DNA of 44,282 nt, taken from a virus. Below the pieces are notes generated by a model. That model saw only the letters and a program-made list of their open reading frames with translations. It searched no databases and was not told the DNA's origin. Positions 1 to 30,403 of this stretch are shown piece by piece; position 1 is the first letter of the stretch; every line of letters starts with the position of its first letter. A program made the translations under genes and the position numbers. The stretch covers positions 1-44,282 of IMG/VR virus record IMGVR_UViG_3300022707_002679; one strand, given 5' to 3'.

Positions 1-89
1 CGTGAATTTTTGTTCGTTGTCTAAATATTTAGGCATACGCTCTCCAACCGGACTTGATTTTCATAGTATAGCAGAAAAACCTTGTTTTC

Positions 90-243
90 TAAAATAGCAA
101 TATAGATTTATAAAATAGCAACTAATTTGATGAAATAGCAATAGTGTTTATAAAATAGAAATATTATTTTCTCAAATGGCAATATATTTCTAAAATAGTA
201 ATTCTATTTCTAAAATAGAAATATTACTTTCTAAAAAAGAAAT
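90..243. repeat. Eight 12-bp direct repeats phased at about 20 bp
   Basis: Copies of TAAAATAGNAAT start at 90, 111, 131, 151, 172, 191, 211 and 232, so the step is 19-21 bp, about two helical turns. The best copies extend to an imperfect 17-bp palindrome, ATTTCTA-AAA-TAGAAAT. Identical helical phasing suggests cooperative binding of one regulator or initiator. Bases between copies are AT-rich and variable. Operators, iterons or a packaging site are all possible. Confidence 0.6.
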
Positions 244-285
244 AAAGTTAATATATTAATGTTTTGTATAGGTTTTTTATAGTAG

Positions 286-5050: not shown

Positions 5051-5194
5051 TTATCTGGTTACAAGATTAATCGCATCTTCTTTGGTATCGAAGCCATGGC
5101 CAAAATTTGTATGCTCCCATCCTGTCACAGGACTGTATGCGATCCATTTTGTTTTCGTACCAAAATATCTTTGCTTAGTTTTTAATTGAATCAT
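5051..5194 (-). CDS. Hypothetical small protein (47 aa)
   Basis: The ATG at 5194 overlaps the methyltransferase stop as ATGA, so translation is probably coupled. The product is small and basic-aromatic: a YFGTKTKWIAYSP strand, then GWEHTNFGHGFDTKEDAI ending in a helix, as in small dsDNA-phage beta-alpha proteins. Function unknown. It fills the gap before terS, and coupling on one side supports it as real. Confidence 0.6.
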   Translation of the reverse strand: MIQLKTKQRYFGTKTKWIAYSPVTGWEHTNFGHGFDTKEDAINLVTR

Positions 5195-6375
5195 CCTGTA
5201 GCCTTTCGTTTAATTGGTTTTTCATTTTCCAAAACAGCCTTCTTACCTGTGTAATTTTCCCAACGTTTTATAATAACTGAAACATAACATGGATCTAATT
5301 CCATCATATAACATATTCGTTTTGTTTTTTCACAGGCGATTAGGGTTGAGCCGGAGCCGCCGAAGAGGTCAATAAAAGACTTAGGGTGTGTTTTGGAATG
5401 CCTATCTGCGTACTCTATACACCATTCAAGTATTTCTATTGGTTTTTGTGTGGCGTGATGTTTTTCTTCTTTATTGGCCTTAGCTCTTGAATATTCTTTT
5501 ATGCGCATAGCATTATCAAATGATGTCCAAGCCATTTCTCCATCAGCTAGAGAGAACCCCCTTTGCCCTTTGTCCCATACTAACCATCCCATAGTAGGGG
5601 GCAAACTATCAGTAAAATAATTTCCTCCCCATATTATTTGATTGGGAGCCAAAGATTGTAGATATTCAAAGAATTCCTTACTTGGTCTTTCCTCGTCCCA
5701 TCCTCCTTTATGTTGCGTCCATCCGTGTTTCTCTTGCCCTAATGCCATAGAGCCACCATAACCAATCCCATAAGGCGGATCAGTAAAAACCATATCAGCC
5801 TTATTACCATCCATCAGTAACGCCACCGTACCGGCATCCGTGCTATCTCCGCACATCAACCTGTGATCACCAAGCAACCAAACATCGCCCAGCTTACTAA
5901 CAGGATCCTCCGGCACATCAGGCACCTCATCCTCATCGGTTAGTCCTTCTGTTTCTTCAAACAACAACGCCTCCAACTCATCATCATCAAACCCGGTAAG
6001 GGATAAATCAAAATCAACATCATCCAGAAACGAGAGTTCATTGGCCAGTATCTCCATATCGAAACCACTATTCATGGTCAGCTTGTTATGCGCGATGATG
6101 TATGCTTTACGTTGATATTCAGTCAGATGTCCCAGCTTGATAATGGGTGTGGTTTTGATACCAAGCTTTTGTAACGCAAGCAGCCTGCCATGGCCCTCAA
6201 TGATTGTGTAATCATCATCGACCGCAATCGGATCGCACATGCTAAATTCTTTTATACTGGCCGCTATCTGATCTATTTGTTCCTGGGGATGTTCTTTAGC
6301 GTTGTTGGAATATGGGATTAGTTTCTTTGTATCCACGTACTCAATGGATAATTCAGTCTTTTTGGATTTAGTCAT
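5191..6375 (-). CDS. ParB-like domain / DNA N4 or N6 methyltransferase fusion
   Basis: A two-domain DNA modification enzyme (394 aa). Residues about 10-110 form a ParB/sulfiredoxin-like N-terminal domain (LIPYSNNAKEHP, then TIIEGHGRLLALQKLG). The remainder is a SAM-dependent amino-methyltransferase: catalytic DPPYGIGYGG near residue 200, and FGGSGSTLIACE with the acidic MMELDP near the C-terminus. DPPY preceding the SAM-binding motif is the beta-class order. Such fusions are common next to terminase genes in alphaproteobacterial phages and prophages; they probably protect phage DNA from host nucleases or adjust packaging or transcription. The start overlaps the upstream gene by ATGA. Confidence 0.88.
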   Translation of the reverse strand: MTKSKKTELSIEYVDTKKLIPYSNNAKEHPQEQIDQIAASIKEFSMCDPIAVDDDYTIIEGHGRLLALQKLGIKTTPIIKLGHLTEYQRKAYIIAHNKLTMNSGFDMEILANELSFLDDVDFDLSLTGFDDDELEALLFEETEGLTDEDEVPDVPEDPVSKLGDVWLLGDHRLMCGDSTDAGTVALLMDGNKADMVFTDPPYGIGYGGSMALGQEKHGWTQHKGGWDEERPSKEFFEYLQSLAPNQIIWGGNYFTDSLPPTMGWLVWDKGQRGFSLADGEMAWTSFDNAMRIKEYSRAKANKEEKHHATQKPIEILEWCIEYADRHSKTHPKSFIDLFGGSGSTLIACEKTKRICYMMELDPCYVSVIIKRWENYTGKKAVLENEKPIKRKATG

Positions 6376-19961: not shown

Positions 19962-20209
19962 CAGAAAAATACAGACCATCTAACGGAACAGAAGGCGATA
20001 TATTTATATCAAAATGGTGCGATAACTGTGTTAAGGACACGGAGGAAAAACCATGTAAAATATTAGGAAACTCTCTTTGTTGGGGTATTGATGATGAAGG
20101 CTATCCTGAAGAATGGACTTATAATGATGCAGATATGCCTATTTGTACAGCATTTACTACAGAGGACGTGGCAAATAAATGTGCTGATACACAGGATATG
20201 TTTGGATGA
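19958..20209 (+). CDS. Cys-rich small protein with T-Q-D-M-F-G tail (83 aa)
   Basis: The ATG overlaps the preceding stop by 4 bp. Six cysteines occur at CDNCVKDTEEKPC, SLCW, PICT and NKC, suggesting a metal-binding or redox fold. The C-terminus, ADTQDMFG, is shared almost exactly with the neighbouring methyltransferases ending at 20949 and 23026 and resembles a sliding-clamp-binding peptide. Function unknown. Confidence 0.65.
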   Translation: MTEKYRPSNGTEGDIFISKWCDNCVKDTEEKPCKILGNSLCWGIDDEGYPEEWTYNDADMPICTAFTTEDVANKCADTQDMFG

Positions 20210-20949
20210 AATTCAAAACAGAAATTATTGGAGACTGTACATTATATCTTGGTGATTGCCTTGAGGTTATACCTACGCTTGATAAGGTTGATGCGGTGGT
20301 TACTGACCCTCCTTATGAATTTGAAGCTTCCGGCGCGGGCATATTTAGAACAAACAGAAAGTGTATGGATTTAATACAAGAAACCGGGTTAAACAAAGGA
20401 TTTGACCATACATTTTTAACCCAGAGCCTCTGTGATTCTGTAATAATATTTTGTCACAACGACCAGCTAGAAAAACTTATCCCGTGGCTATCAAAGGAAT
20501 TTGGTAGATTCTGTTTATGTTTTTGGCACAAAAATAATCCAATGCCTGTTGCTAATAAGCACTATAAACCAGACACAGAAATTTATATACACGCATGGAA
20601 CAAGGACGGATTTCCCATTGGAAAACTGATCGATAAAGGAAGATATTTCTTTTCTCCTGTGGGTAAATCAGAATATGAGCACCCAACTGTAAAGCCGCTA
20701 TCTCTTATGAGAAAGATTATAAAGAACACCAACGGGGAAACAGTCCTTGACCCATTCATGGGAAGCGGAACAACCGGAGTCGCATGTGCCAAGCTAGGAC
20801 GTAAATTCATAGGAATCGAACTGGAAGAAAAATATTTTGATATAGCCTGTAAACGCATAGAAGAAGCTTATGATCAATCAGATTTATTTATTGAACAACC
20901 AGCATCTGAATTACTGCCATATAAAAACACACAGGACATGTTTGGATGA
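20206..20949 (+). CDS. DNA amino-methyltransferase (N4/N6 type)
   Basis: A SAM-dependent DNA methyltransferase (247 aa). The catalytic DPPYEFEASG is near residue 31; the SAM-binding motif DPFMGSGTTGVACAKLGRKFIGIELEE is near the C-terminus. DPPY first and FxGxG later is the beta-class order seen in N6_N4_Mtase enzymes. No specificity domain is evident, so the target cannot be read. It ends NTQDMFG, as the preceding protein does. ATGA overlap upstream and downstream. Confidence 0.88.
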   Translation: MKFKTEIIGDCTLYLGDCLEVIPTLDKVDAVVTDPPYEFEASGAGIFRTNRKCMDLIQETGLNKGFDHTFLTQSLCDSVIIFCHNDQLEKLIPWLSKEFGRFCLCFWHKNNPMPVANKHYKPDTEIYIHAWNKDGFPIGKLIDKGRYFFSPVGKSEYEHPTVKPLSLMRKIIKNTNGETVLDPFMGSGTTGVACAKLGRKFIGIELEEKYFDIACKRIEEAYDQSDLFIEQPASELLPYKNTQDMFG

Positions 20950-21089
20950 CAAAATATAGAGTGACAGTTATATATGAGTCGGGGCGGCAGGAAATACATA
21001 GAAATCTAACTGAAAGAGATGCGCGTGCATTGGAGTTGAGATTGAACTCGCTGGCTACGGTGAAGAAGATTAAGAAGGAGAAGGTGTGA
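20946..21089 (+). CDS. Hypothetical basic protein (47 aa)
   Basis: The ATG at 20946 overlaps the methyltransferase stop (ATGA), and its stop overlaps the next ATG as TGATG at 21089, so it is a coupled link between two methyltransferase genes. The product is strongly basic: strand KYRVTVIYESGRQEIH, helix ERDARALELRLNSL and a KKIKKEKV tail that also encodes the AAGGAG ribosome site of the next gene. Function unknown. Confidence 0.6.
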   Translation: MTKYRVTVIYESGRQEIHRNLTERDARALELRLNSLATVKKIKKEKV

Positions 21090-22000
21090 TGTTGAAACAC
21101 CTTGATTTGTTCAGTGGGATCGGGGGCTTTTCCCTTGGGTTGGAACGAACGGGCGGATTTGAAACGATTGCGTTTTGTGAAATCGAACCATTTTGTCAGA
21201 AGGTATTAAAAAAACATTGGCCAGATGTACCGTGTTATGACGATGTAAGGAGTTTGGATTATGAAGGACCAGTTGACGTTATTACCGGAGGATACCCTTG
21301 TCAGCCATTTAGTGTTGCCGGGAACAGAAAAGGCGAGGAAGATGACCGCCATCTCTGGCCGGCTATGTTTAGTCTCATCACCAAGCACCGGCCGCCTTGG
21401 GTTATTGGAGAAAATGTTGCTGGACACATCAATATGGGACTCGATGATGTGCTTGCTGACTTGGAGAGTGAAGGTTACGAATGCAGGACATTTGTTATTC
21501 CAGCTTGTGCCGTCAAAGCCCCGCATAGGAGAGATAGAGTCTGGATTATTGCCAACACCGAACAGTGCGGCCGGCCCGACTGTCAGAAAACAGACCAAGA
21601 GAGAAAACGGAAGCCAGGAACATATACAGACACAGCTTTATCATTACGGGATGCTTCCGACAGTGAGGGCTTGCACAGCAATGTCAGCACAGATAACAGA
21701 GAACACAGCAAATGCAAAGTTTCCGAATCTGGAAACAATACTAGCGAGGGTGTTTCTGCCAACAATCGGCGCCAACGAGGGCAAGGGGAGTTCGAAGAAA
21801 AGATACAGGGGCAGCAAGGATTTTCGTGGTGCAAAAATGTCAGAAGGATTACGGATTACTTCACAATGCCCGATATACCTAAACCCCTCATTCGCAGAAG
21901 CAGTAATGGGGTATCCCAAAGATTACACGCTCTTGGAAACGCAGTAGTGCCACAAATAGTAACCATTTTAGGACACGCAATATTGGAGGCGGAAAAATGA
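21089..22000 (+). CDS. DNA (cytosine-5) methyltransferase
   Basis: A C5 cytosine methyltransferase (303 aa). Motif I is LDLFSGIGGFSLGL, motif IV GGYPCQPFSVAG with catalytic cysteine, motif VI GENVAG, motif VIII APHRRDRVWIIAN and motif X RLHALGNAVVPQ. The segment between VIII and X is short and low-complexity-like, so the target recognition domain is minimal or atypical. ATG at 21089 overlaps the previous stop (TGATG), after AAGGAGAAGG; a GTG at 21086 is an alternative. A second long frame lies inside this gene. Confidence 0.93.
   Translation: MLKHLDLFSGIGGFSLGLERTGGFETIAFCEIEPFCQKVLKKHWPDVPCYDDVRSLDYEGPVDVITGGYPCQPFSVAGNRKGEEDDRHLWPAMFSLITKHRPPWVIGENVAGHINMGLDDVLADLESEGYECRTFVIPACAVKAPHRRDRVWIIANTEQCGRPDCQKTDQERKRKPGTYTDTALSLRDASDSEGLHSNVSTDNREHSKCKVSESGNNTSEGVSANNRRQRGQGEFEEKIQGQQGFSWCKNVRRITDYFTMPDIPKPLIRRSSNGVSQRLHALGNAVVPQIVTILGHAILEAEK
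21261..21947 (+). CDS. Nested ORF in the C5 methyltransferase gene (228 aa)
   Basis: This frame, shifted relative to the methyltransferase, is open for 228 codons and begins with AAGGAG (21247-21252), 8 nt before an ATG. Its translation shows SGLLPTPNSAAGP, RLGLLEKMLLDTSIWDS and a C-terminal LNPSFAEAVMGYPKDYT. I recall these blocks from phage proteins annotated as hypothetical or methyltransferase-related. They are collinear with the methyltransferase motifs, SGLLPTP lying over RVWIIAN, so the resemblance could partly be a shadow effect. Either a true dual-coding gene or a long shadow frame. Confidence 0.4.
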   Translation: MKDQLTLLPEDTLVSHLVLPGTEKARKMTAISGRLCLVSSPSTGRLGLLEKMLLDTSIWDSMMCLLTWRVKVTNAGHLLFQLVPSKPRIGEIESGLLPTPNSAAGPTVRKQTKRENGSQEHIQTQLYHYGMLPTVRACTAMSAQITENTANAKFPNLETILARVFLPTIGANEGKGSSKKRYRGSKDFRGAKMSEGLRITSQCPIYLNPSFAEAVMGYPKDYTLLETQ

Positions 22001-26899: not shown

Positions 26900-27281
26900 A
26901 TTAATACAGGCACTGGATAAGGTCACGGAAAAGATCAAAAAACTCAAAAAAGAAGAGGCGGAGCTTAAAGAACAGTTACTTGAAAAGCTTGATGTCAATA
27001 TACAGCTTGAACTAATCAAAAAAGATGAACCATACGGAGTTGTACATATTGAGGGACTTGAGATCATCGTACCCAAAAAGGTGATGTGGGATCAAGATAA
27101 ACTGGCTACGCTTTATCAAAACATTTTAATCAGTAATGAAGATCCCAAGGATTACATCGATCTGACTTATAAGGTGGCGGAATCTAAATACAAGGCATGG
27201 CCGGAGAGTGTCAGGTGTAATTTTACAGGTGCACGTAGTGTTGAACCTGGAAGTCCAACTGTAAAGATAGAGAAGGAATAA
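26889..27281 (+). CDS. Hypothetical coiled-coil protein (130 aa)
   Basis: The N-terminal 35 residues are a charged coiled coil (KVTEKIKKLKKEEAELKEQL). A beta region (GVVHIEGLEIIVPKKVMWDQDKL) follows and then a helix. The VPKKVxWDQxKL block is a recurrent phage element. No enzymatic motif. GGAG lies 8 nt before the start. Confidence 0.55.
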   Translation: MTDKLIQALDKVTEKIKKLKKEEAELKEQLLEKLDVNIQLELIKKDEPYGVVHIEGLEIIVPKKVMWDQDKLATLYQNILISNEDPKDYIDLTYKVAESKYKAWPESVRCNFTGARSVEPGSPTVKIEKE

Positions 27282-27283
27282 AC

Positions 27284-27505
27284 ATGAATACAAAAGCCCT
27301 TGGTGTTACACCACTACAACGTGAATATCTGAATTTTATTACCAGATATATAGGTAAACATGAATATTCACCAACGCTTCAGGAAATAGCAGATCATTTC
27401 GACTGTACCGTTGGGAATGTATCGCTGAAAATGAAGGAGTTGAAGTTTCGGAACTGCATTGATTATGCGCCCGGTAAGGCGAGATCGATTGTTGTGAAGG
27501 ATTAA
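27284..27505 (+). CDS. LexA-type winged-helix DNA-binding protein (73 aa)
   Basis: The sequence follows the LexA N-terminal domain: PLQREYLNFITRYI, SPTLQEIADHFDCTVGNVSLKMKEL as the helix-turn-helix, and ARSIVVKD as the wing end. It has no peptidase domain, so it is not a self-cleaving repressor. Immediately upstream of the first guide array (13 bp) and the Tas-like gene, it may regulate the RNA-guided locus, or simply be the preceding operon gene. Confidence 0.8.
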   Translation: MNTKALGVTPLQREYLNFITRYIGKHEYSPTLQEIADHFDCTVGNVSLKMKELKFRNCIDYAPGKARSIVVKD

Positions 27506-27518
27506 ATCCAGATGTGAT

Positions 27519-27618
27519 GATGGTAACAAACGAAAAGAGTGAGCCAAAACCTAAGACAGTAACACTGAACACAAGCGAGCCATATACGATAACAGTAACA
27601 GAGAATCCGAGCAACTAC
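27519..27618 (+). repeat. Short TIGR-like guide array (3 units of 36 bp)
   Basis: Motif A (GATGGTAACA 27519, GACAGTAACA 27555, AACAGTAACA 27591) alternates with motif B (GAGTGAGCCA 27537, AAGCGAGCCA 27573, degenerate GAGCAACTAC 27609). All are 10 bp and separated by 8-nt spacers, so the period is 36 nt. Spacers after A are aacgaaaa, ctgaacac, gagaatcc; after B aaacctaa, tatacgat. A diverged B (ATTAAATCCA, 27501-27510) may precede. It sits between the LexA-like gene and the Tas-like gene start at 27637, in the same orientation as the long array. Confidence 0.85.
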
Positions 27619-27636
27619 TAACCAAAGGAGAAGCCG

Positions 27637-28650
27637 ATGAGTACATTAGAACCAATACAGAAACTAACCAAAGATATCCTCAAGGGAGGTGCCGGCACGC
27701 TATCCAGTACCGGCGCACGCTTTCTGGTCGATGCTTATTATCAAATGCAGGAAAACCGTAAACGATCCGACAATCAAGTCCGGTCAATGATTGATAGTGG
27801 GGAGCCAGATGAGATATTACAATGGTTTGCCGATCAGAACGCTGGTCTTGAAAATCAGGTTAAACGCGCCCTTGATGCTTATTCAGATGCTAATCCAGTG
27901 GGACAATGGGCAAGATCACAGAAGGGCATAGGGCCTGTTATAACAGCCGGATTGCTTGCACATATCGATATTAAACAGGCACCAACTGTGGGGCATATAT
28001 GGAGCTTTGCCGGGCTTGATCCGACAGTTACATGGAAGGGGCGCACCAAGGTCGATGCGTTTGTCAAAAAACTTGATAAAAGCATGGATATTGATAAATT
28101 TCTGACCGAGATTAGCGGTTTTGTAAATCGTAAACCAGAGAATATAAAACGCATAGCTGAACGTTTGGCCAAAGAAAAGAAGCTCACCAAGGCACATATT
28201 GCGAGCGCGGCCAGTCAACCTCCGCATAATAGCGGTTTGAAAACATTGTGCTGGAAAGTGGGCCAGAGTTTTGTGAAAGTATCAGGTGATGAAAATGCTT
28301 TCTATGGCCAAGTATATAAACGGCGTAAAGAATATGAAGTCAAAAAGAACGAGGCCGGTGATTACGCTGATCAGGCAGAAAAGAAATTAGAGGATTTTAA
28401 TATAGGTAAAAATACCGATGCCTATAAATCATATTCCGTTGGCCGATTGCCACCTGCACATATACAGGCAAGAGTAGAACGCTACGCGGTTAAGATATTT
28501 TTATCTCATTTACATGAAGTGTGGTATTTCGATGAGTTTAAGAAATTACCACCTAATCCGTTTGCAATAGGGATTTTAGGACATGCCCATAAAATTGATC
28601 CACCGGGATTTGATATGATTGATGGATTAATGGAAGCGAGAGCAGCTTGA
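27637..28650 (+). CDS. tasA: Tas-like protein: Nop / IS110 C-terminal fold, nuclease-less (TasA type)
   Basis: This 337-aa protein is flanked on both sides by the guide arrays. GIGPVITAGLLAHIDI (residues 97-112) and SFAGLDP (near 124-130) match the helix-hairpin-helix element of the IS110/IS116 Transposase_20 domain, which is related to the Nop domain of box C/D snoRNPs. LKTLCWKVGQSFVKV and AFYGQVYKRRKEYE match the C-terminal end of that domain. No N-terminal DEDD/RuvC-type acidic set and no HNH motif is seen, so DNA binding without cleavage is expected. AAAGGAG precedes the ATG. Assignment follows the published Tas families; the final subfamily is inference. Confidence 0.82.
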   Translation: MSTLEPIQKLTKDILKGGAGTLSSTGARFLVDAYYQMQENRKRSDNQVRSMIDSGEPDEILQWFADQNAGLENQVKRALDAYSDANPVGQWARSQKGIGPVITAGLLAHIDIKQAPTVGHIWSFAGLDPTVTWKGRTKVDAFVKKLDKSMDIDKFLTEISGFVNRKPENIKRIAERLAKEKKLTKAHIASAASQPPHNSGLKTLCWKVGQSFVKVSGDENAFYGQVYKRRKEYEVKKNEAGDYADQAEKKLEDFNIGKNTDAYKSYSVGRLPPAHIQARVERYAVKIFLSHLHEVWYFDEFKKLPPNPFAIGILGHAHKIDPPGFDMIDGLMEARAA

Positions 28651-29164
28651 TTTTGAGCCAGATATCCCGAAAGTAACACGCCTGAAAAGCGAACCAAACA
28701 CGACAATAGTAACAAAATGGCTGAGTGAGCCACGCTCTGCGATAGTATCATGACACCGAAGCGAACCAGTTTATCCGATAGTAACAATACATCCGAGTGA
28801 GTCATTAATAGAGATAGTAACAAAGAACTAAAGCGAGTCAGACCATCTGATAGTAACACGCCCCATGAACGAACCATGGTCAGTGATAGTAACATCATTA
28901 TGGAGTGAGCCAATAAAATGGATAGTAACATCCGGATGAAGCGAACCATAGGGACTGATAGTAACAGTAAGAAAGAGTGAGCCATTTAGGTTAATAGTAA
29001 CATATGAGCGAAGCGATCCACGACTCCGGATAGTAACATGGTATAGGAGCGAGCCAAAGAAAGGGATAGTAACAATAAACTCAAGCGAGCCACATCTCTA
29101 AATAGTAACATGGGAATAAAGCGAGCCATAATGCACGATAGTAACATCAATTCCGAGCGATTAA
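28651..29164 (+). repeat. Long TIGR-like guide array (14 units of 36 bp)
   Basis: Fourteen A motifs (RATAGTAACA) start every 36 bp from 28669 to 29137, each followed 18 bp later by a B motif (RAGYGARCCA; 28687 to 29155). The 8-nt spacers all differ. Variants are GAAAGTAACA (first), GATAGTATCA (28741) and a decayed last B, GAGCGATTAA (29155). A leading B-like TTTTGAGCCA begins directly after the tas stop (28650). The array runs into the stop codon of the convergent o-spanin gene (29161-29163). B copies partly alternate AAGCGA/GAGTGA, giving a 72-bp super-period. Processing would give 36-nt RNAs, each with two spacers. Confidence 0.9.
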
Positions 29165-29388
29165 GGCACCACACCATAACGGCAAATATAGAGCTCACGC
29201 TGCTGTTCGGCAAAATCGATATAGAAATGAGGTAGCTGTTCAACCAGTATATTCTCTTGGGCTTCCGTTGGTATAAGAGGTCTGGGACAGATATTATTTA
29301 TCGCCTTTATTTCGGAGACGCCGGAACAACCCGCGAGCAGAATCGACATCAGTAATGTCATCATTATTCTGCTTTTCAAGTATGGCAT
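29161..29388 (-). CDS. o-spanin-like outer-membrane lipoprotein (75 aa)
   Basis: The N-terminus holds a lipobox, MTLLMSILLAGCSG, so the mature protein would be a short, lipid-anchored periplasmic peptide, as expected for Rz1-type o-spanins. It overlaps the preceding gene by 95 bp in another frame, the classic Rz/Rz1 arrangement. It follows holin and endolysin genes. Its stop codon coincides with the end of the guide array. The identity of the partner is inferred from position. Confidence 0.65.
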   Translation of the reverse strand: MPYLKSRIMMTLLMSILLAGCSGVSEIKAINNICPRPLIPTEAQENILVEQLPHFYIDFAEQQRELYICRYGVVP

Positions 29389-29500
29389 TTTCTTTTTTTA
29401 ATTGTTCGATTTTAGCGGCATCGACACCTTGTCGCTTCATATCCCATCGGTCCATAAAAAAACTTAAGACTGATTTGAATAAAAAACTTAAAACACCCAT
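29294..29500 (-). CDS. i-spanin-like protein (68 aa)
   Basis: The ATG at 29500 overlaps the holin stop (TAATG). The N-terminus is a hydrophobic helix (MGVLSFLFKSVLSFFMDRW) followed by a charged coiled coil (KIEQLKKENAILEKQN), as in i-spanins, though it is short. The open frame extends 11 codons further upstream into the holin but without a ribosome site. With the lipoprotein it would form the spanin complex that disrupts the outer membrane. Confidence 0.55.
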   Translation of the reverse strand: MGVLSFLFKSVLSFFMDRWDMKRQGVDAAKIEQLKKENAILEKQNNDDITDVDSARGLFRRLRNKGDK

Positions 29501-29697
29501 TAAGCTTCGGACTTCTTCATCGCACTTCGCCATGCCCAGAGCATAGCAGCAACCAGACCGTAATCACCAGTAGTGTCAAGTCCCACCAACTCAACAGGAA
29601 GCTCCGGTACAAAATACTTGGCAACAGCCAGCCCGGCCAATCCCAAAGCAATTAAGTAAGTTTTGTTACCATTAACAAGTTCCATCAGTTTACCCAT
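29500..29697 (-). CDS. Putative holin, two membrane segments (65 aa)
   Basis: Two hydrophobic stretches, TYLIALGLAGLAVAKYF and YGLVAAMLWAWRSAM, flank a polar acidic loop; the N-terminus (MELVNGNKTYL) and basic C-terminus suit a class II holin. AAGGAGAATATT precedes the ATG. It lies 13 bp downstream of the endolysin gene, a normal holin position. Holins form lesions that release endolysin. Confidence 0.7.
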   Translation of the reverse strand: MGKLMELVNGNKTYLIALGLAGLAVAKYFVPELPVELVGLDTTGDYGLVAAMLWAWRSAMKKSEA

Positions 29698-29709
29698 AAT
29701 ATTCTCCTT

Positions 29710-30267
29710 TTATTTAATTCCATTATCTTTTGCGACCTCTATAGCAAAGGCATGAACTCGCATAAGCCTCCTAGACCAGCCTAAAGCATTAGGTTTAAAA
29801 TTTCCAGCTAAACCATAGCGTTTCATTCGCAGCGCACAAATTTCGTGAAGTGTATCTATGTTGTAATTTTGATGCGCAGCTAGTCGGGTTTTATCTCCCA
29901 TGATTCCATCTCGTTTTTGATGAACTGCCGCCTGTAAATCTTTGACAGCCGCGCTTGGACCTTGGTTTACGGCGGCATCAAACACAATAAAGGCGATACC
30001 TCGGGGAAGTATATCACCATTTATTTTAGACCAGAAATGTTCAAAATAAATATCTTTAGCTTGAAGCAATGAAAGAGCAATTATATCAGCTTTATCCGTT
30101 TTACCGTTTTTATCAATATCAAGACCGATACTACCGGCGAATCGAAGGCTAATTCCATATTTGGTTGTGCCACCGGGATCACCCACTGGATCAACAACGA
30201 GTCCACCCTCGTGCTTTATTACCTCGTCAACAAATAAATCAAATGTGTTTATCTTTTTTTTTGGCAT
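29710..30267 (-). CDS. Endolysin, GH108 lysozyme-like (N-acetylmuramidase)
   Basis: Cleaves peptidoglycan at lysis. The GH108 signature is present: VIKHEGGLVVDPVGDPGGTT followed by KYGIS, with the catalytic Glu in KHEGG, then a helical C-terminal domain containing FDAAVNQGPSAAVKDLQAA typical of its peptidoglycan-binding half. The start chosen is ATG 30267, just before the domain; the frame opens upstream to 30345 over another ORF, so the start is uncertain. 185 aa is of normal length. No signal peptide, so export depends on the holin. Confidence 0.88.
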   Translation of the reverse strand: MPKKKINTFDLFVDEVIKHEGGLVVDPVGDPGGTTKYGISLRFAGSIGLDIDKNGKTDKADIIALSLLQAKDIYFEHFWSKINGDILPRGIAFIVFDAAVNQGPSAAVKDLQAAVHQKRDGIMGDKTRLAAHQNYNIDTLHEICALRMKRYGLAGNFKPNALGWSRRLMRVHAFAIEVAKDNGIK

Positions 30268-30403
30268 TGGTGTTTTCAAATAGCCTCGTAACAAAGCAAC
30301 CATTAACTTTTTTAATTTCTGTATCCAATTCTTGTCGACACACATTCAATTTTGTTTTGACCTCTTTAAGTTCTTTTCGATGTGAAAACAAACTAATCAC
30401 CAT
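30239..30403 (-). CDS. Hypothetical basic helical protein (54 aa)
   Basis: AAAGGAAAAG precedes ATG 30403, which overlaps the preceding gene's stop by 11 bp. The product (HRKELKEVKTKLNVCRQELDTEIKKV) is a short, basic coiled coil ending inside the endolysin gene (29 bp overlap). It is soluble and has two cysteines. Possibly a lysis accessory protein; no family recognised. Confidence 0.45.
   Translation of the reverse strand: MVISLFSHRKELKEVKTKLNVCRQELDTEIKKVNGCFVTRLFENTNAKKKDKHI

What the first reader, a model, noticed from the sequence alone, without database searches (positions are those of the whole stretch)
28651..29164. Perfect 18/36-bp register with a 72-bp super-period in the array
Every A motif lies exactly 36 bp from the next and every B exactly 18 bp from its neighbours, with no indel over 14 units, although all spacers differ. 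B copies alternate AAGCGA and GAGTGA types across much of the array (units 1-4 and 7-11). That suggests growth by duplication of two-unit (72-bp) blocks followed by spacer replacement, or spacer acquisition in pairs. Strict length conservation with diverged content points to an RNA processing ruler.
Basis: seen in the sequence. Interest (0 to 1): 0.75.

Follow-up and report, generated by a model that had tools for sequence, protein, structure and literature searches.

The report
Phage TIGR-Tas guide RNA array
The evenly spaced repeats are a string of short guide RNAs that sit beside the gene for their protein partner in a bacterial virus, a recently described RNA-guided DNA-binding system, and comparison with related viruses suggests that the guides are swapped out far faster than the partner protein changes.

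Summary
The register is real: 14 loop repeats (RATAGTAACA) and 15 edge repeats (RAGYGARCCA, both end copies truncated) alternate every 18 bp over 28651-29164, no indel, 8-nt spacers. It is a dual-repeat TIGR array (TIGR-Tas, PMC12045711). The adjacent gene 27637-28650 encodes its Nop-domain partner; the model (pLDDT 89.6) matches TasH (Z 19.1) and TasR (Z 17.7) without a nuclease domain, so TasA type. A second array that the finding did not mention (27501-27618, 3 guides) lies upstream of tas. All 22 viral and 7 genome-contig relatives carry such arrays within about 4 kb of tas. The 72-bp super-period is not supported: no spacer similarity at that offset (p 0.35); edge alternation is marginal (p 0.025, post hoc) and not seen in 10 other arrays. 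Duplicated guides occur in relatives at offsets of 2 to 9 units. Guides turn over much faster than tas: with Tas 99.7% identical 7 of 23 guides are shared, with 87.8% 1 of 14; guides are nearly identical or unrelated. No target was found above controls. Known system, new member; the turnover comparison bears on the open question of how such arrays change.

The parts
27284..27505 (+). small winged-helix protein, LexA DNA-binding-domain type, directly upstream of the first array; possible regulator (inferred)
   Evidence: Pfam PF01726 E 1.3e-8; 67% identical protein in the same place in L001's record
27501..27618 (+). upstream TIGR array, 3 units (spacer pairs GATGTGAT/AACGAAAA, AAACCTAA/CTGAACAC, TATACGAT/GAGAATCC) with truncated edge repeats at both ends, between the stop codon of the LexA-like gene and the start of tas
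   Evidence: sequence read, laid out in register; L001 has a longer array (17 parsed units) in the same place with homologous ends
27637..28650 (+). tas gene, 337-aa nuclease-less Nop-domain protein (TasA type)
   Evidence: PF02371 E 6.1e-5; profile search TasR 9mty E 2.1e-21 and TasH 21kl E 6.9e-15; AlphaFold2 model pLDDT 89.6, Z 19.1 to TasH 9vzx, 17.7 to TasR 9mty
28651..28660 (+). 5'-truncated edge repeat (TTTTGAGCCA) that opens the downstream array, directly after the tas stop codon
28651..29164 (+). downstream TIGR array, 14 units: edge - spacer A (8 nt) - loop - spacer B (8 nt), 36 bp each
28759..28794 (+). unit 4 (GTTTATCC/ATACATCC), the only guide shared with the closest relative L001 (GTTTGTCC/ATACATCC, 15 of 16 letters)
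29155..29164 (+). 3'-truncated edge repeat (GAGCGATTAA) that closes the array; overlaps the end of the convergent ORF 29161-29388 (-)

Best explanation
A dual-repeat TIGR-Tas locus of the TasA (no nuclease) kind in a tailed phage. B is the edge repeat, A the loop repeat. Shown here by sequence: unit structure, truncated edge repeats at both ends, arrays on both sides of tas, Nop-domain partner. Inferred from the published TIGR work: both arrays are transcribed with tas and cut inside the edge repeats into 36-nt tigRNAs in the presence of Tas; a symmetric Tas dimer holds edge and loop through their common ends (RA...CA in both repeats here); spacers A and B pair with opposite strands of a 16-bp DNA target, possibly with a 0-2 bp gap. 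The 18/36 register is therefore a geometric ruler of the RNP. Since no nuclease domain is present, the most likely effect is to bind and bend target DNA and block its transcription or replication, probably in competing mobile elements; that last step is a guess (about 0.4) that the original authors also voice.
For: The anatomy agrees with the published definition: two alternating 8-12 nt repeats, spacers of about 9 nt (8 nt in SpTIGR), most often 5-15 units, truncated edges at both ends, beside a Nop protein (definition; window). Tas: profile match to TasR and TasH; structural match to TasH and TasR with Z 17.7-19.1 over 194-233 residues, above IS621 at Z 13.0 and the first unrelated chain at 7.5. 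The match begins after the nuclease part: profile positions 38-187 to TasR residues 123-270. Arrays with 35-37 bp units lie within about 4 kb of tas in 22 of 22 viral loci and 7 of 7 genome-contig loci. Spacers A and B of a guide are inherited together: between L003 and L006, 7 guides shared whole against 1 pair with only one spacer identical.
Against: No terminator-like site on the plus strand after the array (3 sites found in 27200-29500, all on the minus strand and inside the array, 2.0 expected), whereas published arrays usually have one. No DNA target was found above mismatched-pair controls in the phage itself, in 0.94 Mb of Tas-bearing loci and records or in related phages. Expression, processing and DNA binding were not tested.
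Confidence: 0.9

Rival explanations
1. The array grew in the window by duplicating two-unit (72-bp) blocks or by taking up spacers in pairs.
For: Edge first bases alternate A/G (12 runs, p 0.025) and edges two units apart are slightly more alike (8.55 of 10, p 0.046). Two relatives hold near-identical guides two units apart (L006, L069).
Against: Spacers two units apart are not more alike (p 0.35); edges five units apart are as alike (8.75 of 10); ten other arrays show no alternation; duplicated guides in relatives lie at 2, 2, 3, 3, 4, 6, 9, 9, 9 units.
Confidence: 0.05
2. An array of protein-binding DNA sites (iterons or partition sites) rather than guide RNA.
For: Regular spacing could place sites along the helix; a LexA-type winged-helix protein is encoded next door and a ParB-like/methyltransferase protein elsewhere in the phage.
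Against: It does not explain truncated edges at both ends, a Nop protein near the array in all 29 relatives, or two repeat types with common ends; several relatives have 35 or 37 bp units.
Confidence: 0.04
3. A CRISPR array.
For: Regular repeats with unique spacers.
Against: Two alternating 10-nt repeats and 8-nt spacers; no Cas model matched among 10 window proteins scanned against PADLOC; the neighbour is a Nop protein.
Confidence: 0.01
4. A cluster of box C/D-like guides for RNA modification rather than DNA targeting.
For: Nop domain, dual guide with C/D-like boxes, tandem layout.
Against: The Tas proteins tested so far act on DNA (PMC12045711); no methyltransferase is encoded directly beside tas; the closest structures are DNA-bound TasH and TasR.
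Confidence: 0.04

Closest known systems
TIGR-TasA dual-repeat loci (Faure et al. 2025, PMC12045711)
   Same: Solo Nop-domain effector, alternating edge and loop repeats, 36-nt unit, truncated edges at the ends, arrays up- and downstream of tas, in a tailed phage.
   Different: 8-nt spacers (16 nt per guide) rather than 9; an insertion of 55-60 residues at about residues 136-193 of Tas, shared with L001, shorter in L003 and L007, missing in the other nine rows of alignment A1; no terminator seen.
TIGR-TasH (PDB 9vzx, 9w04, 21kl)
   Same: Best structural match (Z 19.1, 18.7, 18.7).
   Different: No HNH domain in the window protein.
TIGR-TasR (PDB 9mty)
   Same: Z 17.7, rmsd 2.7 over 194 residues, 26% identity.
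   Different: No RuvC domain; TasR repeats begin UG and end CCA, here RA and CA.
IS110/IS621 transposases
   Same: Shared C-terminal Transposase_20/Nop-like domain (PF02371; IS621 Z 13.0).
   Different: No N-terminal DEDD domain; an array of guides instead of one bridge RNA.

Membership tests
TIGR-Tas (dual-repeat) | Nop-domain Tas protein beside the array | tested here: met
TIGR-Tas (dual-repeat) | two distinct alternating 8-12 nt repeats separated by about 9-nt spacers | tested here: met
   10-nt repeats, 8-nt spacers; published SpTIGR also has 16 nt per guide
[quoted passage not shown]
   28651 TTTTGAGCCA and 29155 GAGCGATTAA; same for the upstream array
TIGR-Tas (dual-repeat) | rho-independent terminator after the array (typical, not strict) | tested here: inconclusive
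   no plus-strand terminator-like site in 27200-29500; simple consensus scan only
TIGR-Tas (dual-repeat) | transcript processed into 36-nt tigRNAs | not testable with these tools
   needs RNA sequencing
TIGR-Tas (dual-repeat) | spacers direct Tas to both strands of one DNA target | tested here: inconclusive
   no target above controls; binding not testable
TasA subtype | no HNH or RuvC nuclease domain | tested here: met
   only PF02371 matched at E up to 0.1; the structural match starts at model residue 23 and TasR residue 111, so the N-terminal nuclease part has no counterpart
IS110 transposase | N-terminal DEDD (RuvC-like) domain with C-terminal Transposase_20 | tested here: not met
   Transposase_20 only; aligns to IS621 residues 125-320 only
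CRISPR-Cas | Cas proteins and a single repeat of about 23-50 nt (recalled) | tested here: not met
   two 10-nt repeats; no Cas model among 10 proteins scanned, other window proteins not scanned with PADLOC

The most novel reading that the evidence does not exclude
TIGR guides are replaced as whole dual-spacer units, much faster than tas changes and without point drift, which would mean that an unrecognised process, not encoded beside the array, inserts, swaps or recombines complete 36-bp units: a guide memory without Cas1-like adaptation genes.
Probability: 0.25. Interest if true: 0.85.

Novelty: new member of a known kind. Interest (0 to 1): 0.5.

Why it matters
TIGR systems were described in 2025, and their authors name two open questions: what TasA does, and how arrays arise and change. 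This locus and its relatives give natural series of arrays at Tas identities of 99.7, 99.3, 92 and 88%, in which guide gain, loss, duplication and replacement can be read directly, and one guide kept between two phages that is a starting point for a target search.

Tried and rejected
72-bp periodicity: tested by permutation of unit order and in ten other arrays; dropped.

Targets: guide pairs were searched as spacer A followed by the reverse complement of spacer B (order 1) and in the other order (order 2), gap 0-2, both strands, against mismatched pairs from the same array or phage. Own phage: best 2-4 mismatches, true mean 3.0 (order 1) and 2.93 (order 2), control mean 3.19 in both (14 guides); the 3 upstream guides 3, 3, 4, no control run. 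422 guides against 0.94 Mb: 3 exact hits, all in order 2, against 4 exact hits in 844 control pairs; one category (order 1, gap 1, one mismatch) had 20 hits against 14 in twice as many controls, but its list is inflated by near-duplicate records and 7-nt spacers, so I dropped it. Related phages: 58 guides, 3 hits with one mismatch, controls 11 with at most one in 290 pairs. Order 1 is my derivation from the paper's C-5 rule and 8-nt 3' overhangs; another sentence of the paper reads differently, so both orders were run.

Kept guide GTTTRTCC/ATACATCC in viral contigs: 14, 12, 4 and 18 hits for order 1 gap 1, order 1 gap 0, order 1 gap 2 and order 2 gap 0, i.e. 8, 12, 3 and 15 independent clusters. 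Seven of the 14 gap-1 hits lie in one phage family, in a gene whose protein looks to me (recalled, not searched) like a single-strand annealing recombinase. In six such sequences searched with all 58 guides, the only other guide with at most one mismatch was window 28975 in G040, where controls average 1.3. I treat this as chance plus an abundant family. A guide shared by L003, L006 and L007 gave 49 hits in 31 clusters, not followed.

Spacer A against spacer B of one guide: no relation (2.16 against 2.10 same sense, 2.06 against 1.97 reverse complement, 351 guides). Rfam: no match in the window. Phage records: no match to the Tas protein. Structure families not listed by VIA-align were not taken as excluded.

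Full report
What is there. From 28651 to 29164 on the plus strand two 10-nt repeats alternate every 18 bp: A, RATAGTAACA, and B, RAGYGARCCA, with 8-nt spacers that all differ. There are 14 A copies, and 15 B copies if the truncated ones at both ends are counted, and no indel. RATAGTAACA is found 12 times in the window, all here, against 0.26 expected by shuffling.

What it is. The layout is that of a TIGR array as defined by Faure et al. 2025 (PMC12045711; I read the abstract and outline, parts 1-3 of the main text, the stem-loop section and the discussion, and passages found by term). B is the edge repeat, since the array opens with a 5'-truncated B right after the stop codon of the gene 27637-28650 and closes with a 3'-truncated B; A is the loop repeat. 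Each unit is edge, spacer A, loop, spacer B. The 36-bp unit is the published length of the mature tigRNA. Both repeats begin RA and end CA, as expected if both contact the same site of a symmetric dimer.

The partner. The 337-aa product of 27637-28650 matches Pfam Transposase_20 (E 6.1e-5), and a profile of 13 relatives matches TasR 9mty (E 2.1e-21), TasH 21kl (6.9e-15) and, weaker, IS621 (1.6e-4). 9MTY is the TasR entry named in the paper. AlphaFold2 on 22 aligned relatives gives pLDDT 89.6, pTM 0.84. Foldseek's nine matches with E up to 0.001 are all TasH or TasR chains; VIA-align gives TasH 19.1, TasR 17.7, IS621 13.0, first unrelated row 7.5. The nuclease domains of TasH and TasR have no counterpart, so this is TasA-type. 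PHROGs calls the family 'transposase' (phrog_4285), which is misleading.

A second array. Upstream of tas, 27501-27618, three more units stand in the same register between the stop codon of a LexA-type winged-helix gene and the ribosome-binding region of tas. L001, the closest relative (Tas 88% identical), has an array of 17 parsed units in the same place, with homologous flanks, and 27 parsed units downstream against 14 in the window. The window thus carries 17 guides.

Relatives. A scan of IMG/VR with the Tas protein gave 22 loci, and one of genome contigs with the alignment gave 7. All 29 have a 35-37 bp dual-repeat array within about 4 kb of tas. My parser found 422 guides in the window and 27 of these 29 loci (L004 and L022 left out as near copies of L003 and L021; the window's upstream array, too short for the parser, is not in this number); 351 have 8+8 spacers. 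Twelve records of phages related by terminase or primase, among them a 46-kb one with 73% terminase identity, showed no Tas at E 0.001; they may be fragments, but tas looks like an accessory gene. Between the window and L001's record tas is the most conserved of 22 matched ORFs (87.5% against 27.7-73.1%).

The 72-bp claim. Edge types do alternate as described, but the test is weak: 12 runs in 14, p 0.025, not corrected and chosen after the fact; offset-2 edge identity p 0.046, while offset 5 is as high. Spacers at offset 2: p 0.35. Among 11 arrays with enough variation the mean runs z is 0.20, and the window's 2.06 is the only one above 1.2. Guides duplicated inside one array occur nine times (at least 12 of 16 letters), at offsets 2, 2, 3, 3, 4, 6, 9, 9, 9. 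In L019 a run of several units is repeated about 326 bp downstream; within it one unit is wholly different while its neighbours are kept. So duplication and replacement are real, a two-unit rule is not.

Guide turnover. Tas identity against shared guides (at least 13 of 16 letters), all seven pairs that I compared: L018/L020 99.3% aa, 11 of 17; L003/L006 99.7%, 7 of 23; L003/L007 92.4%, 5 of 23; L006/L007 92.0%, 3 of 24; window/L001 87.8%, 1 of 14; L018/L019 93.1%, 0 of 17; L019/L021 62.6%, 2 of 45. In the five pairs examined, best matches are two-humped: near identity, or what reversed spacers give. In shared units spacers differ about as often as repeats (for example 6 of 112 against 9 of 140; the 13-of-16 threshold limits this comparison). 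Hence whole units seem to be gained, lost or swapped rather than slowly mutated; against this, in L019's duplicated block two guides differ at several letters, which looks like drift. Shared order is mostly but not fully kept. Whether new units come from other arrays by recombination or are newly acquired cannot be told here.

Targets. None found above mismatched-pair controls, see Tried and rejected. The one guide kept between window and L001 hits one abundant phage family with a 1-bp gap, in a gene that looks like an annealing recombinase (recalled), but independent hit clusters are no more than for the other geometries.

Literature. Searches for TIGR-Tas/tigRNA, for TIGR array with TasA/TasH/TasR, and for 'tandem interspaced guide RNA' with spacer (open-access PMC only) listed the original paper, one review (seen in the listing and start of abstract only) and passing mentions; I saw no comparison of arrays between related phages in what I read. 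The supplement of the original paper could not be read, so this very locus may be in its table.

Noticed in passing
window 86-244: A+T-rich tandem repeat with periods of 20, 40 and 60 bp near the end of the record; nature unknown.
   Followed up: no
window 27637-28650, residues about 136-193: Tas of the window and L001 has a 55-60 residue insertion between GLDPTxxW and the NxGLKTLCWK stretch, shorter in L003 and L007, missing in the other nine rows of the alignment; modelled as confident helices.
   Followed up: partly
window 5191-6375 (-): Protein with ParB-like N-terminal and N6/N4 DNA methyltransferase domains; two more methyltransferase genes at 20206-20949 and 21086-22000. ParB-like genes are reported beside some TasA loci; here it is about 20 kb away.
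   Followed up: no
window 29161-30345 (-): Convergent lysis-type genes downstream of the array: GH108 endolysin 29710-30345, and small holin-like and spanin-like ORFs by position and look only; the last edge repeat overlaps the end of the first of them.
   Followed up: no
L066:5055 and L066:6357: The identical guide TCTCCAGC/GCGAGAAT stands in both the upstream and the downstream array of one locus.
   Followed up: no
L070 (Halomonas sp. NO4), L064 (Acidobacteriaceae bacterium KBS 96), L069 (Ca. Propionivibrio aalborgensis): TIGR-TasA arrays in named bacterial genomes, good places to look for host or prophage targets.
   Followed up: no
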